Below, in pieces: positions 584-5,651 of a DNA stretch of 64,000 bases. Source of the DNA: Thermoproteus sp. (GTDB lineage Archaea; Thermoproteota; Thermoprotei; Thermoproteales; Thermoproteaceae). The stretch spans positions 1,911,824 to 1,975,823 of the forward strand of contig JAWARJ010000001.1 in assembly GCA_038893495.1 (NCBI GenBank). The letters are read 5' to 3'. Made by a program: the position numbers and the translations under genes. The notes under the pieces were generated by a model. The model saw nothing but the letters and a program-made list of their open reading frames with translations, had not been told where the DNA came from and did no database searches. Positions within the stretch are counted from its first letter, which is position 1, and the number at the start of each line of letters is the position of its first letter.

Positions 584-889
584 ATGGCGAAGATGGTGGT
601 AAGCCTTTCCGTAACTCCTCTAGGCACAGGCTCAACGCACCTCTCGGCCTACGTCAGAGCCGCCACAGAAGTCTTAAGGGAAATGGGCATCAAGTACAGA
701 ACGGGGGCCGGATTCACCGATATAGAACTCGACGACTATTCCACCCTAGCTGAAATCTTGAAGAAAATAGAGGAGAAGCTGACGGCCATGGGCGTAAGGC
801 GTGTTGACTTCATAATTAAAATAGATAGGCGGATGGACGAAGAGCTCAGTATAGAGGGAAAAATATCGAAAGTCGAAAGGCGCCCGTAA
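584..889 (+). CDS. MTH1187/YkoF-like thiamine-binding family protein
   Basis: A 101-residue protein of the MTH1187/UPF0045 (DUF77) type: a small ferredoxin-like fold protein, usually tetrameric, that in characterised relatives binds thiamine or a related pyrimidine. Visible family features are the N-terminal beta strand followed by a P-L-G-T-G-S segment, the L-x-E-x-G-I-K-Y-x-T-G strand, and a late helix ending in V-D-F-I-I-K-I-D. Ligand is unknown here. Its 3' end overlaps the convergent cobS by 44 nt. Confidence 0.75.
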   Translation: MAKMVVSLSVTPLGTGSTHLSAYVRAATEVLREMGIKYRTGAGFTDIELDDYSTLAEILKKIEEKLTAMGVRRVDFIIKIDRRMDEELSIEGKISKVERRP

Positions 890-1520
890 AGACCAGAAAC
901 GCAGTCCTACTTATTTCTAGCAAATAGCCCAATACGTCGCCGTTGGCGCCGCCGAGATGTTTATACGCTATATAGTACAACAGAAAAGACGAGAACAAGG
1001 CCAACAACGCTGATGGGTACAACAAAATCGTTATAGCCAACGCCGGCAGGACTAAAGGCCATTTGCCCGCAGAAGAACGGATAAAAGAAGAGCCGAGGCC
1101 CTCCTTGAACGGCCGCGAGAAGCCTGCTAGTAAAACAACAAGCGACTTCGAGAAGATCTCTCCCAATAGTAGTTGCCATGGGCTTTTTAGGTACGCCGTG
1201 GAGAGAAGGACTGAAGCCACAACGGCGAAAATTCCGGCAGTACCTCTCCGAGGGTCTTCCAGTACGGCCCTGGCCTTCTCCCTATCTCTAACCATTAGGG
1301 CATCGGCGGTATCGGCCAGACCATCCAGATGGTTCAAGCCGGTCAGTAGGAGTAAGATCAAATACGAGACGAGGGGCCCCATCGCCGTGAAGGCCAAGGC
1401 GGAGATTCCACCCACTATGGGCGCCACCACATAGGGCAGAGCCCAGGCGCAGGAAAAGTCTAGATCGGCCTTGGCTGGCACCACCGTGAAGAAGGCGATC
1501 AGCGATTTGAGGCAACGCAT
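846..1520 (-). CDS. cobS: Adenosylcobinamide-GDP ribazoletransferase (cobalamin synthase)
   Basis: A 224-residue polytopic membrane protein joining AdoCbi-GDP with alpha-ribazole or its phosphate, the last assembly step of adenosylcobalamin synthesis. The diagnostic acidic motif N-H-L-D-G-L-A-D-T-A-D-A (about residues 63-74) follows the second hydrophobic segment, and the P-R-R-G-T-A-G block follows at about 90. The rest is hydrophobic helices. The start codon lies inside the end of the upstream cobD (22-nt overlap), indicating translational coupling in the cobalamin operon. Confidence 0.9.
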   Translation of the reverse strand: MRCLKSLIAFFTVVPAKADLDFSCAWALPYVVAPIVGGISALAFTAMGPLVSYLILLLLTGLNHLDGLADTADALMVRDREKARAVLEDPRRGTAGIFAVVASVLLSTAYLKSPWQLLLGEIFSKSLVVLLAGFSRPFKEGLGSSFIRSSAGKWPLVLPALAITILLYPSALLALFSSFLLYYIAYKHLGGANGDVLGYLLEISRTAFLVFTGAFRLSIFFPLY

Positions 1521-2416
1521 AGGGCCTTTATCAATATGTCGTTTTCCTCCCTCCCCTTTATCGACACCCTAGAGAGGCCGGCCAGGCCCAAATCGTCGAG
1601 AGGCCTTATTTTGACCACGTCTGTTCTGCCTCTAATTATAAAGAAGTGCAACGGCGATTTAAACACATCTACACATTTAGAGAGCGCGTCTTGCACTCTA
1701 GGGCTCTCCGCCGACACGTATTCTCGCGTAGCCGCTCTATGGCCCCTCAACGCCTCAGAGCCTATATGATACACGGCGTAGTCCGCTATGGAGTTAACCC
1801 GCCAGGGCGGCTTCAAGTCCGGATCTATATCGCCCAAAATCGCGCCGAGCCTCAAGCCAGGAACTGCTAATATCTTGCCATAAGACTTGACTACCAACAC
1901 GTCAGGAGCCGCCGATTCCTCCTCTACAAAATCCAAAAAGGATTCATCTACAATCAGGCTCGCACCCCGCAGAGACAGAGCTCTATTTAGCTCTAATACT
2001 TGGTCGCGGCGAAACAAAGCGCCTGTGGGGTTGTTGGGATTACACAGGATAAGTACATCTCTAGGCTCTGCCCTTCTCACCAATTCTCCTAACTCTCCTC
2101 TGACTACCTCCAAGCCGAACGCCCGCGCGATGCGGACGTAGTCGCTGTAGGTGGGCCAGGGCAGTAGAAGCCTCTTGGGCCTAAGCGACGACAAGGCAAC
2201 TTCAAGAGCCTCCGTGGCTCCATTGAACAACGTCACGTTAACGCCTTCATATTCCGAAAGGACTTCCTCAGCCAAATTTGCAGGGAACTTTAGGTATACC
2301 TTCCTCTCCACAGCCTCGCGTATGAGCTCTATGAGTCTCTGTGGAGGTCCCAGCGGGTTTAAATTATCACTGAAGTCTAATACCTCCCGCTCGGCCCAAG
2401 ACGTACCTCCATGCAC
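1499..2416 (-). CDS. cobD: Threonine-phosphate decarboxylase (CobD-type PLP enzyme)
   Basis: A 305-residue fold-type I PLP enzyme of the histidinol-phosphate aminotransferase superfamily. The N-terminus (H-G-G, then F-S-D-N-L-N-P-L-G-P-P) is the typical CobD/CobC start; N-P-N-N-P-T-G is at about 126-132 and the presumed PLP lysine is about K181 in S-Y-G-K. CobD decarboxylates L-threonine phosphate to (R)-1-amino-2-propanol phosphate, the nucleotide-loop linker. Shorter than many homologues, and it carries no fused kinase domain. A histidinol-phosphate aminotransferase role is possible from the family, but the overlap with cobS argues for cobalamin synthesis. Confidence 0.8.
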   Translation of the reverse strand: MHGGTSWAEREVLDFSDNLNPLGPPQRLIELIREAVERKVYLKFPANLAEEVLSEYEGVNVTLFNGATEALEVALSSLRPKRLLLPWPTYSDYVRIARAFGLEVVRGELGELVRRAEPRDVLILCNPNNPTGALFRRDQVLELNRALSLRGASLIVDESFLDFVEEESAAPDVLVVKSYGKILAVPGLRLGAILGDIDPDLKPPWRVNSIADYAVYHIGSEALRGHRAATREYVSAESPRVQDALSKCVDVFKSPLHFFIIRGRTDVVKIRPLDDLGLAGLSRVSIKGREENDILIKALCVASNR

Positions 2417-2434
2417 AAAAGGAAAAACAGCCGA

Positions 2435-3604
2435 TTATTTATAGCCGAATAGATTCGCCAAATAGCTCTGCTCCCAATTGTCCTTAGCTAGAGTGTAGTC
2501 CCTCTTGGGCTCCGGATCTTTTGTCGGCTTCGGCGGCTGGCTAGTGAAGTCGAGACCGAACCTCACCGAAAGGGTCTCTAGCCTGCCTTCCGGATTGCCT
2601 ACGTAGGCCCAGCCAACGAAGGCATATTGAACCGACGCCCTATAGGGCAGGCCCTCCATTTCCAGTATCTTATTTGCGGCGAACAGCGCGCTCTCGAAGG
2701 CTATTTCTTGGTTCTTGGGGAACGGCAGACCCGCCGCATCTCCAGCGGCCAGCACGTCGTCGTATTTGGGATGCCTCAAGTCTTGCGGACTCCTTACATC
2801 TATCCAGTTCTTGCCGAGGCCCGCCTCCTCGACGAATTTAGGCGCCCTATTGGGCTCCAATAGGGCCAGAATATCGTATTTATAACGCTCCCCAGATTTA
2901 GTAACAACCTCGTTCGCCCCAATCTCAACTATCTCTTGGTTAAGCACGAGGTCGATGCCCAACTTAGAATACAACTGGCCCACTACGTCCGCTATCACCG
3001 GCGGCTGGGTCTTGTCGTTAGCGTCTATATGTACAATTTTGAACTTGCCCCGCACGCCTCTACTACGTAACGCAGTGTCTATCAATAAGGCGGTCTCGGT
3101 AGGCGCTGGCGCACATCGATACGGCGCCTTGGGCGCGTACACTACCACATTGCCCCCCTCGGCGCTCCAGACCTTGCTCTTCAATAGATGCACCCTGCCG
3201 GGATCATATACGTTCAAGACGTTATGCCTGTACCTCTCATAGCCAGTTATGTTGGAGCCGTCCAACACGACGCCAGGCGCCAACAACAGATAGTCGTAGC
3301 TAAGCTCGCCAGTCCCGCCATTAGAGACATACCCGCCTACATACCTTACCTTTCTGTTTTCTGGGTCTATCGAGAAGACCGTGCCCACCACAAGTTTGAA
3401 ATTCCTCCTAGCGGCCTCCTCATAGCCCCTCACTATTCTGTCTAGCGACTGTTCGTTTGTGAGCAGTAGAGGCCTACTGGGCCCAGAGACGTAGTGGGGG
3501 TTTTGGGTTATCACAGTTATCTCCGCATCTATCTTGCCCTCCAATAGGGTCTTAACTGCGGCCATTCCAGCAATCCCGCCGCCAACCACGACTACCTTCT
3601 TCAT
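2435..3604 (-). CDS. FAD/NAD(P)-dependent oxidoreductase, sulfide:quinone reductase/FCSD-like
   Basis: Predicted 389-residue two-Rossmann flavoprotein. The N-terminal G-G-G-I-A-G dinucleotide motif begins at residue 7 and the C-terminal A-A-G-D-A-A-G FAD motif precedes a C-terminal extension. The segment [10 protein letters not shown] resembles the cysteine-containing block of sulfide:quinone oxidoreductases and flavocytochrome c sulfide dehydrogenases, but this is the only cysteine; the second redox cysteine of SQR is absent. I chose the ATG at 3604 because a TATA-like box lies about 24 nt upstream and the Rossmann strand starts at once; an in-frame ATG at 3625 is possible. It lies 18 nt upstream of cobD. 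A corrinoid reductase role is conceivable but unsupported. Confidence 0.65.
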
Positions 3605-3717
3605 AAAACCAGCTTCAAATTCCATTTTTAAAGATTTTCGATTATTATAGATAAAAATCAAAAAATAATATCTTAATAATAAAATAGTAAATAATTATTA
3701 AATATAATTTTATATTA

Positions 3718-4275
3718 CTAAAAATTTAATATTTTATTTATTAGAAAAGAAGTCTCAGCACCTATCTCTGTCGCGAGCCCGGCGTAATGTACATCGCCAG
3801 GCGGCGCCGCGACCAATATGGCGTCTGATGTAGTGCCCAGAGCAGGCCTCCCGCCGCACAGTCTGCGGGACGTCAAGACGGCCGCTTTGGCTTCGGCGGC
3901 CGTCCTAAATAGGTCTAAAAGCCCCCTACGGGACAGGGCCCTTTTCGACACCACCAATAGGTTTATTGTACCGCCTCTGGCGGGCGCCACGTCGCCTATA
4001 CATGCAGGATTGCTCAGACCTACCGTGGCGTATATAGTTACTTGTGTCCCCTCGACGCGCCTTATGTTTACTAGATCGATTGCCGTGAAGAACACGGCGG
4101 CCTTCCCAAGGAGCCCTAAGCCCTCCAGGAGGCTGTAGGCGTAGGACTCGAAGTCCTCGATATATTTATCTACTTGTTTGAAGACCACATATTCTATCTC
4201 GGCGAAGTCGCCACCGAACACTACATTGCCCAAGGCTGTCAGACGGGCCCCTAGGCTTAACACTAAGAGCGTCAA
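3718..4275 (-). CDS. cbiZ: Adenosylcobinamide amidohydrolase
   Basis: A 185-residue protein matching CbiZ, which hydrolyses the aminopropanol amide of (pseudo)cobinamide-type corrinoids to adenosylcobyric acid so that archaea can salvage and remodel cobamides. Visible family blocks are V-G-L-S-N-P-A near residue 87, an A-E-A-K-A-A segment, and G-T-T-S-D-A-I near residue 147. It follows cobO by 21 nt on the same strand and is probably co-transcribed with it. Downstream is a 113-nt A/T-rich gap carrying the promoter of the next gene. Confidence 0.85.
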   Translation of the reverse strand: MTLLVLSLGARLTALGNVVFGGDFAEIEYVVFKQVDKYIEDFESYAYSLLEGLGLLGKAAVFFTAIDLVNIRRVEGTQVTIYATVGLSNPACIGDVAPARGGTINLLVVSKRALSRRGLLDLFRTAAEAKAAVLTSRRLCGGRPALGTTSDAILVAAPPGDVHYAGLATEIGAETSFLINKILNF

Positions 4276-4296
4276 GGCCCGGCCGCCGAGACCATA

Positions 4297-4758
4297 TCAC
4301 CAATCGAGCCCCCTAACGCCCACCACGCCTCTAGAGTAGTAGTGCTTCACGGCCCTAATTTCGGATACTAAATCTGCTCGTTCCAGCTCGCCGAAATAAT
4401 AATTGCCGGTGACCACCACATGGGGCTTGAGTCCCACCAGCCTCCTGAATTCATCAGGTCTAATGAAGCCCTGCCTCACCGCGTAGTTAAACTCGTCGAG
4501 GACCACTAAGTCGTAGTTCTGCGCCTCCGACAGCGCCTCCTCTAGGAGGTCCCGAGGGCTCTTGTGGTCTTCTAGATACAACGCACGTATTCCCAGACGT
4601 CTCAACGCCTTGTATTCACCAGTATAGTCGTTGAGGTATCTAGGAGTCTTCATCATAAATACGGCGAGCACCTTCATGTCGTGACCCCACGCCCTCAACA
4701 ACAGCCCTAAGGCCGCCGTGGTCTTGCCCTTCCCGTCGCCAGTATATACGAGTATCAT
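4297..4758 (-). CDS. cobO: Cob(I)yrinic acid a,c-diamide adenosyltransferase (CobO/CobA/BtuR family)
   Basis: A 153-residue P-loop ATP:corrinoid adenosyltransferase that attaches the upper 5'-deoxyadenosyl ligand to the corrin cobalt. The P-loop G-D-G-K-G-K-T-T begins at residue 7 and the Walker B-like strand L-V-V-L-D-E-F-N is in the middle, both diagnostic for this family. It is slightly shorter than bacterial CobA (about 170-200), lacking part of the N-terminal lid. It sits 26 nt downstream of the cobY fusion gene and upstream of cbiZ. Confidence 0.9.
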   Translation of the reverse strand: MILVYTGDGKGKTTAALGLLLRAWGHDMKVLAVFMMKTPRYLNDYTGEYKALRRLGIRALYLEDHKSPRDLLEEALSEAQNYDLVVLDEFNYAVRQGFIRPDEFRRLVGLKPHVVVTGNYYFGELERADLVSEIRAVKHYYSRGVVGVRGLDW

Positions 4759-4784
4759 AGTGAGGTCTCGTCCGGTCTATAAGT

Positions 4785-5651
4785 CTATAGAGGGTCACAT
4801 CTGAGAGGTCTCACCTTAGACAGATCCTCTATATCGACTTCGATGTGTTGCAACTCCGAGACGTGCCTCCCGCCGTAATAATGACGCGTCGCCCTCACGC
4901 CGAGCCTCAAGCCACGAGAGGCAGCCGATACAACATAGAGTTTAGATACGTCCAGGCCCCCCGATTTGACGTCCACACGGGAGTAGTCCATGGGGACCAC
5001 AGGCGCGGGGAGTCCGCGCTCCATCAACGCGCGGAGCCTATGGTGGCCATCTAGAACTGTACATGTCCAAGCATCCACTACTATAGGCTTAACCCTCTGC
5101 CCCAACGTCAAGGCAGTCTCCACGTCTTCGTGGGGCAGAAGCGAACTGGGGTCCACCACTATGGGGTACGTCGGCCCCTCACGGCCTAGGCGCACAAGGT
5201 CGTCCCTCGCATCTACATCGTCCAGTTCGGGGAAGTAGACATCCACCCACCTCGTCGTATCTGCGCTTGGAAGCCACGTGACGCCTATATGTCCTCGCGC
5301 CCCGACGGCCGACGCCATGAGCGGCTCCGACATAAGCCGGGCGACGTGACTCGGCGAGAGAAACGGGACGTCACACGCCGCCAATACCGCCGGCGCGTAG
5401 CTAATGAGCTCCAAAAAATCGTGTTCGTAGCCGAGCCCGCTGGTGTATATCACGTCGAGACCCCAGAGACGCGCCAGCCAGACCACAGGGCCGTGCGATC
5501 TAGTGGTGGCTACAGCCAATGCGTCCACAAACGGCTGTAGAGCCGCGGCGACTCTCAACAACATAGGCACCCCTCCGACGGGGCGGAGACATTTAAACGG
5601 GTCGCCGAATCTAGAGCCCCTACCTCCAGCCAGCACGATGCCGAGTACCAC
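4785..5651 (-). CDS. cobY: CobY-type adenosylcobinamide-phosphate guanylyltransferase fused to a ParB/SerK-like kinase domain
   Basis: A 288-residue two-domain protein. Residues 1 to about 150 form a MobA-like nucleotidyltransferase with L-A-G-G-R-G-S-R-F-G (7-16), a conserved Lys-Cys after it, and an A-A-C-D-V-P-F metal-binding aspartate (about 91-97): this is archaeal CobY, the GTP:AdoCbi-phosphate guanylyltransferase replacing CobU. Residues about 155-288 look like the ParB-fold small-molecule kinases (ADP-dependent serine kinase SerK, SbnI): P-I-V-V-D, then L-D-G-H-H-R (200-205), then T-R-H near 255. From context I infer a free L-threonine (or serine) kinase feeding CobD. The start is a GTG at 5651 with a TATA-like box about 25 nt upstream. 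Confidence 0.75.
   Translation of the reverse strand: MVLGIVLAGGRGSRFGDPFKCLRPVGGVPMLLRVAAALQPFVDALAVATTRSHGPVVWLARLWGLDVIYTSGLGYEHDFLELISYAPAVLAACDVPFLSPSHVARLMSEPLMASAVGARGHIGVTWLPSADTTRWVDVYFPELDDVDARDDLVRLGREGPTYPIVVDPSSLLPHEDVETALTLGQRVKPIVVDAWTCTVLDGHHRLRALMERGLPAPVVPMDYSRVDVKSGGLDVSKLYVVSAASRGLRLGVRATRHYYGGRHVSELQHIEVDIEDLSKVRPLRCDPL

What the first reader, a model, noticed from the sequence alone, without database searches (positions are those of the whole stretch)
4785..5651. CobY fused to a ParB/SerK-like kinase domain: candidate threonine kinase for cobalamin synthesis
Seen: a complete CobY nucleotidyltransferase followed by a domain with the L-D-G-H-H-R motif and later T-R-H of the ParB-fold serine kinases (SerK, SbnI). 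Known: CobD needs L-threonine phosphate; bacteria use PduX, and Methanosarcina has a bifunctional CobD with a kinase domain. Here CobD (1499-2416) has no kinase domain and no PduX gene is seen. Inference: the CobY C-terminus phosphorylates threonine, joining two nucleotide-loop enzymes in one chain.
Basis: partly seen in the sequence, partly recalled or inferred. Interest (0 to 1): 0.7.

Follow-up and report, generated by a model that had tools for sequence, protein, structure and literature searches.

The report
CobY fused to SerK-type kinase domain
In heat-loving Thermoproteus and Pyrobaculum archaea, a vitamin B12-making enzyme (CobY) is fused to a small kinase domain related to enzymes that phosphorylate free serine, and relatives of that domain also sit as separate genes in other archaeal B12 operons, making it a good but untested candidate for the threonine kinase that most archaea appear to lack.

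Summary
In detail: 4785-5651 (minus strand, 288 aa) is a CobY-type guanylyltransferase (1-157) fused to a compact SerK-type domain (158-288). The fusion is conserved in 14 Thermoproteus/Pyrobaculum genomes. It is present in 12/12 family genomes with CobS and absent from 4/4 without. New here: standalone SerK-like genes also lie in the cobamide operon, mostly directly after CbiB, in a distant family (8 genomes), as two different SerK types. The genome has no PduX-like kinase. So a SerK-family kinase acting in nucleotide-loop assembly is well supported. That its substrate is threonine is inference: characterised SerK rejects threonine, the fusion has lost about 10 residues after the catalytic Glu, and several CobS-positive relatives have no SerK-like gene. 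Rivals: cobinamide kinase (a CobU analogue), serine kinase for norcobamides, or a nucleotide-sensing domain. Verdict: partly supported; new variant of a known kind.

The parts
4785..5651 (-). Fusion gene, 288 aa: CobY-type guanylyltransferase + compact SerK-type kinase domain
   Evidence: ORF; conserved whole in 14 genomes; model pLDDT 96.8, pTM 0.94
5181..5651 (-). N-domain (residues 1-157), CobY-type NTP transferase with LAGGRGSR...K motif
   Evidence: PF12804 E 4.4e-17; 3rsb CobY top Foldseek hit, Z 17.9
4788..5180 (-). C-domain (residues 158-288), compact SerK-type kinase domain
   Evidence: Profile vs 5x0b E 7e-8; model vs SerK Z 14.7, 117 residues, 2.2 A
5127..5135 (-). P-H-E motif (residues 173-175); E175 aligns with catalytic Glu30 of SerK
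5037..5054 (-). L-D-G-H-H-R motif (residues 200-205; SerK 68-73)
   Evidence: invariant in 14 fusions
4881..4889 (-). T-R-H motif (residues 255-257; SerK T223-R224-H225); W replaces R in all 8 g3 (Pyrobaculum-type) fusions
4297..4758 (-). CobA/CobO/BtuR corrinoid adenosyltransferase, same operon
   Evidence: PF02572 E 8e-35
3718..4275 (-). CbiZ adenosylcobinamide amidohydrolase, same operon
   Evidence: PF01955 E 5e-34
1499..2416 (-). CobD threonine-phosphate decarboxylase type, 305 aa, no extra domain
   Evidence: TIGR01140 E 1.9e-46, below its cut-off; PF00155
846..1520 (-). CobS cobamide-phosphate synthase
   Evidence: PF02654 E 1.5e-37; TIGR00317 over cut-off

Best explanation
A bifunctional nucleotide-loop enzyme. 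The N-domain is CobY, which transfers GMP from GTP to adenosylcobinamide phosphate (inferred from family, structure and operon). The C-domain is a compact SerK-fold kinase that phosphorylates the hydroxyl of a free beta-hydroxy amino acid, with Glu175 as the catalytic glutamate (the residue aligned with SerK Glu30). Most likely it makes L-threonine-O-3-phosphate, which CobD in the same operon decarboxylates to the aminopropanol phosphate that CbiB attaches to adenosylcobyric acid. Shown here: fold, homology, active-site conservation, operon context, co-inheritance with CobS, and independent linkage of SerK-like genes to cobamide operons. Inferred: kinase activity, threonine as substrate, and the phosphate donor (ADP, ATP or another NTP is open).
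For: SerK homology by profile and structure. The model fits the phosphoserine+AMP SerK complexes 5x0e/5x0j (Z 13.8) better than AMP-only 5x0b or ADP-only 5x0g (Z 10.6-10.7), though E30Q+AMP 5x0k also scores 13.8. Glu30, Asp69, Gly70, His71, His72, Arg73, Tyr92, Thr223 and His225 (SerK numbering) are invariant in all 14 fusions. Family f1: fusion in 12/12 CobS-positive genomes and 0/4 CobS-negative ones. Standalone SerK-like gene within 7 kb of CobS in 8 of the 15 CobS-positive genomes of family f47, read in order CobY-CobD-CobS-CbiB-SerK-like in L123, L124, L126, L160, L161 and L167. Those genes match the NCBIfam SerK model at 8.5e-15 (L126) and 5.8e-16 (L167). The only SerK-like match in G000 is the fusion. 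Its five GHMP kinases match galactokinase, shikimate, mevalonate, homoserine and pantoate kinase models, not PduX. CbiB is present. CobD is near the fusion in the complete clusters read.
Against: T. kodakarensis SerK rejects threonine. The fusions lack about 10 residues (the helix after the catalytic Glu) that the standalone relatives aligned have, which may alter nucleotide binding. The order relatives f2 (Vulcanisaeta/Caldivirga-type) and f3 mostly have CobS but no SerK-like gene, so this class of kinase is not essential for archaeal cobamide synthesis. Other SerK-like genes sit beside CysK or SerA/glycine-cleavage genes, implying serine as the ancestral substrate. CobY and threonine kinase are not consecutive steps.
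Confidence: 0.55

Rival explanations
1. The C-domain is an adenosylcobinamide kinase: with CobY it recreates in one chain the two activities of bacterial CobU/CobP (kinase plus guanylyltransferase), phosphorylating the aminopropanol hydroxyl of salvaged cobinamide.
For: Fusion partner is exactly the enzyme that lacks CobU's kinase activity; the aminopropanol hydroxyl is the former threonine hydroxyl; no CbiZ was found in the cluster of one Thermoproteus genome, L196.
Against: CbiZ, the archaeal cobinamide salvage enzyme, is in the window operon and in most fusion clusters; CobD is nearby and needs a phosphorylated amino acid; known SerK/SbnI substrates are small.
Confidence: 0.15
2. The C-domain keeps the ancestral serine specificity: it makes O-phosphoserine, CobD decarboxylates it to ethanolamine phosphate, and the organisms make norcobamides.
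For: The characterised relatives SerK and SbnI use serine; ethanolamine phosphate as linker of norpseudo-B12 is proposed in Sulfurospirillum (PMC4585668).
Against: No norcobamide is known to me from Thermoproteales; position 224 is basic in all Cys-linked SerKs but W/Y/C/L in g3 (Pyrobaculum-type) fusions and the long operon type, which hints at changed specificity but is unproven.
Confidence: 0.12
3. The C-domain is a non-catalytic nucleotide- or amino-acid-sensing domain that regulates CobY.
For: The ParB fold is a versatile NTP-binding module often used in fusions (PMC12704722); loss of the helix after the catalytic Glu.
Against: Catalytic Glu30 and the DGHHR and T-x-H residues are invariant across 14 divergent fusions; standalone relatives occupy the same operons without CobY fused.
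Confidence: 0.1
4. Serine kinase for cysteine or serine metabolism that only happens to be fused to CobY.
For: Compact SerK relatives are next to CysK-like genes in L063, L068, L087 and L130.
Against: The fusion disappears with CobS in four family members, including complete genome G016.
Confidence: 0.05

Closest known systems
CobY of Methanocaldococcus jannaschii (3rsb), GTP:AdoCbi-P guanylyltransferase
   Same: N-domain fold (Z 17.9, 2.0 A/150) and operon setting
   Different: Known CobY is a single domain; here a kinase-type domain follows. Sequence score to the methanogen CobY model is only 16.3 bits against a cut-off of 250
SerK, ADP-dependent free serine kinase of Thermococcus kodakarensis (TK0378; 5x0b, 5x0e)
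   Same: Fold (Z up to 13.8 for TkSerK, 14.7 for the P. furiosus homologue, over 117 residues), catalytic Glu30, DGHHR, T-x-H
   Different: 130 instead of 242 residues: the central insert (about 90 aa) and part of the helix after Glu30 are missing; fused to CobY; cobamide rather than cysteine context
SbnI, ATP-dependent free serine kinase of staphylococci
   Same: Same fold, Z 12.2
   Different: Siderophore pathway, longer, with an extra regulatory region
PduX/BluE L-threonine kinases
   Same: Proposed reaction only
   Different: Unrelated GHMP fold (fold assignment from my own knowledge); no such gene among the five GHMP kinases of this genome
Methanosarcina mazei MM2060 (CobD with threonine kinase activity)
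   Same: Proposed reaction only
   Different: There the kinase activity belongs to the CobD protein itself (recalled from memory; title cited in PMC9986279)

Membership tests
CobY guanylyltransferase | NTP_transf_3 domain with GGxGxR...K loop | tested here: met
   PF12804 E 4.4e-17; motif invariant in 14
CobY guanylyltransferase | Fold of CobY | tested here: met
   3rsb first in Foldseek; Z 17.9; other nucleotidyltransferases (GlmU, NeuA) score as high, so fold alone does not single out CobY
CobY guanylyltransferase | Curated model NF045495 (methanogen CobY) cut-off | tested here: not met
   16.3 bits against 250; model is for methanogens
CobY guanylyltransferase | Cobamide operon context, tracks CobS | tested here: met
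CobY guanylyltransferase | GMP transfer to AdoCbi-P | not testable with these tools
   needs assay
SerK/SbnI free amino acid kinase superfamily | SerK fold, distinct from ParB | tested here: met
   Z 14.7 SerK, 12.2 SbnI, 5.5 ParB/Noc
SerK/SbnI free amino acid kinase superfamily | Catalytic Glu30, D69-G-H-H-R73, T223-x-H225 | tested here: met
   invariant in all 14 fusions
SerK equivalog (NF053625, ADP-dependent L-serine kinase) | Curated cut-off 380 bits | tested here: not met
   window C-domain E 0.16; best fusion E 2.7e-5; 12 of 14 match weakly
SerK equivalog (NF053625, ADP-dependent L-serine kinase) | Full 242-residue architecture with central insert | tested here: not met
   131 residues; insert absent
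L-threonine kinase (EC 2.7.1.177) | Phosphorylates free L-threonine | not testable with these tools
   only context evidence
PduX-type threonine kinase | GHMP kinase fold | tested here: not met
   C-domain is SerK fold

The most novel reading that the evidence does not exclude
A new, ParB-fold class of L-threonine kinase for cobamide synthesis exists in archaea, probably recruited more than once from free serine kinases, once fused to CobY (Thermoproteaceae) and otherwise encoded next to CbiB (family f47). It would fill the open EC 2.7.1.177 step in part of the archaea.
Probability: 0.5. Interest if true: 0.75.

Novelty: new variant of a known kind. Interest (0 to 1): 0.6.

Why it matters
Threonine phosphate is needed for the aminopropanol linker of B12. 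The enzyme making it (EC 2.7.1.177) is listed as an open pathway gap in haloarchaea (PMC8305020), and from memory only one archaeal protein with the activity (MM2060) has been reported. A 131-residue domain from a hyperthermophile with a defined catalytic residue makes the question directly testable. If true, free amino acid kinases of the SerK fold changed substrate from serine to threonine, and a further unrelated protein family carries out this step.

Tried and rejected
Pfam does not detect the C-domain (ParBc_2 E 0.1 only), and phmmer with the single window sequence gave no SerK hit: a multi-sequence profile was needed. MobA as identity of the N-domain: MobA models score best in NCBIfam, but the genome has a separate MobA-like gene (L207) and context plus structure favour CobY. 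Structure search with the full model lists only nucleotidyltransferases, so the C-domain was modelled and searched alone. A literature search for a CobY-SerK fusion or a SerK-type threonine kinase found none in the open library; absence from that library is not proof. One origin for all operon-linked SerK-like types: weakly rejected (AU p 0.035), but fusion plus the long operon type as one clade is not rejected (p 0.24), so 'three independent recruitments' is not claimed; two further AU tests did not finish. I did not test directly for a PduX model, only for all GHMP kinases.

Full report
Observation. The gene at 4785-5651 is real and on the minus strand: 288 aa, GTG start. It lies in an all-minus cobamide operon: CobS 846-1520, CobD 1499-2416, an FAD oxidoreductase 2435-3661, CbiZ 3718-4275, CobA 4297-4758, then the fusion, with gaps of 21-56 bp between the last four.

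N-domain. PF12804 E 4.4e-17. The AlphaFold2 model (pLDDT 96.8, pTM 0.94) has M. jannaschii CobY 3rsb as first Foldseek hit, Z 17.9 and 2.0 A over 150 residues. GlmU and NeuA folds score as high, so the assignment to CobY rests also on context: the operon, co-inheritance with CobS, and a separate MobA-like gene elsewhere in the genome.

C-domain. Single-sequence searches fail and Pfam gives nothing significant. A profile of the 14 fusions hits free serine kinase of T. kodakarensis/P. furiosus at 7e-8, with no other match better than E 0.3. Pooled with standalone relatives the profile reaches 2.4e-19 for SerK and 6e-11 for SbnI. The domain model alone (pLDDT 95.9) matches SerK at Z 14.7, 2.2 A, 117 residues, 26% identity, and SbnI at Z 12.2; ParB and Noc drop to 5.5. 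It fits the SerK complexes with phosphoserine plus AMP (5x0e, 5x0j; Z 13.8) better than AMP-only or ADP-only forms at Z 10.6-10.7, although E30Q plus AMP (5x0k) also scores 13.8. It is a compact SerK: the roughly 90-residue insert between DY and the C-terminal T-x-H motif is absent.

Active site. In SerK numbering Glu30 (mutated in 5x0e/5x0g/5x0j/5x0k), Asp69, Gly70, His71, His72, Arg73, Tyr92, Thr223 and His225 are invariant in all fusions; in the window Glu30 is E175. Position 224 is Arg or Lys in SerK and in all five cysteine- or serine-linked relatives, but Trp in the eight g3 (Pyrobaculum-type) fusions and Tyr, Cys or Leu in the long operon-type standalone proteins; the six Thermoproteus fusions keep Arg but change 219-222. 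I note this as a possible specificity marker, not as proof. The fusions also lack about ten residues after the P-H-E motif that standalone relatives have; this is the main structural reason for caution about donor binding.

Distribution. In the window's family the fusion is present in 12 of 12 genomes with CobS and in none of 4 without it (uncorrected Fisher p about 5e-4). One CobS-negative member, G008, holds a frame-disrupted remnant of the CobY part. No fusion was found outside Thermoproteus/Pyrobaculum by the genome-contig scan.

Independent context. Across 299 genomes of the phylum, standalone SerK-like genes are common. In family f47 (G201 has the size of Ignisphaera aggregans, an inference from contig length), 15 of 18 genomes have CobS, and in 8 of these a SerK-like gene lies within 7 kb of it. 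In six loci it directly follows CbiB on the same strand: L123, L124, L126, L160, L161, L167. Two different SerK types occupy this slot, a compact one (L123, L167) and a long one (L124, L126, L160, L161). In L129 (G114) the SerK-like gene is about 13 kb from CobS but next to a second DUF71/PP-loop gene pair of the kind found in cobamide clusters. Tree: fusions form one clade (support 99), the long operon type another (95), the compact operon type lies elsewhere. Holding all three together is weakly rejected (AU p 0.035); fusions plus long type is not (p 0.24). So at least two origins are suggested, not proven. Other compact relatives sit beside CysK (L063, L068, L087, L130) or between a SerA-like gene and glycine cleavage genes (L088), fitting serine phosphorylation as the ancestral role; these neighbour names are my reading of sequences, not profile hits.

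Missing kinase argument. The whole genome has five GHMP kinases, best matched by galactokinase, archaeal shikimate kinase, mevalonate kinase, homoserine kinase and pantoate kinase models (the first and last below their cut-offs); none matches a PduX model. The only SerK-like match is the fusion. CbiB is present at C1:1135060. So threonine phosphate has no other obvious source, except a bifunctional CobD of the MM2060 kind or a side activity of homoserine kinase. The argument is not watertight: CobS-positive relatives in families f2 and f3 mostly have no SerK-like gene.

Mechanism. Most likely the C-domain transfers phosphate from a nucleotide to the hydroxyl of threonine with E175 as the catalytic glutamate, CobD decarboxylates the product, CbiB attaches it, and the CobY domain of the same chain later activates the resulting AdoCbi-P with GTP. 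The steps joined are not consecutive, so the fusion need not mean channelling. A CobU-like reading (cobinamide kinase plus guanylyltransferase) is the best rival; serine/norcobamide and regulatory readings follow.

Literature. SerK is specific for free serine and rejects threonine (PMC5120207). A 2025 survey of ParB-fold fusions mentions neither CobY nor cobalamin in its main text and found a SerK-like protein binding CTP (PMC12704722), so the donor is open. EC 2.7.1.177 is an open gap in haloarchaea (PMC8305020). The papers on MM2060 were not readable here.

Verdict. Observation confirmed; SerK-family membership of the fold confirmed; role in cobamide nucleotide-loop assembly likely; threonine as substrate plausible and untested.

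Noticed in passing
window 2435-3661 (-): FAD-dependent (FCSD/SQR-like, by eye) oxidoreductase embedded between CobD and CbiZ in the cobamide operon; also in the clusters of L195 and L196. Role in corrinoid metabolism (e.g. cobalt reduction for CobA) unknown.
   Followed up: partly
L088:7983-8405, L087:7734-8369, L063:7904-8356, L068:8057-8692: Compact SerK-like genes beside SerA/glycine cleavage or CysK genes in Micrarchaeota, an uncultured bacterium and archaeal genomes of the window's class: SerK-type kinases seem far wider than the 2016 statement (Thermococcales and Desulfurococcales only).
   Followed up: partly
L126, L124, L160, L161, L167, L078, L199: A DUF71 gene and a PP-loop (NadE/AsnB-like) gene travel as a pair with archaeal cobamide clusters; the PP-loop partner's role is unclear to me.
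   Followed up: no
L080 / G008:C8:3280-3764: Frame-disrupted remnant of the CobY-type gene in a family member that has lost CobS: apparent decay of the cobamide operon.
   Followed up: partly
window 846-5651 versus L195, L196: CobT-like (DBI_PRT) gene is inside the cluster of other Thermoproteus genomes but not in the window cluster.
   Followed up: no
G019-G028 (families f2, f3): CobS-positive Thermoproteales with no SerK-like gene; their source of threonine phosphate is unaccounted for.
   Followed up: no
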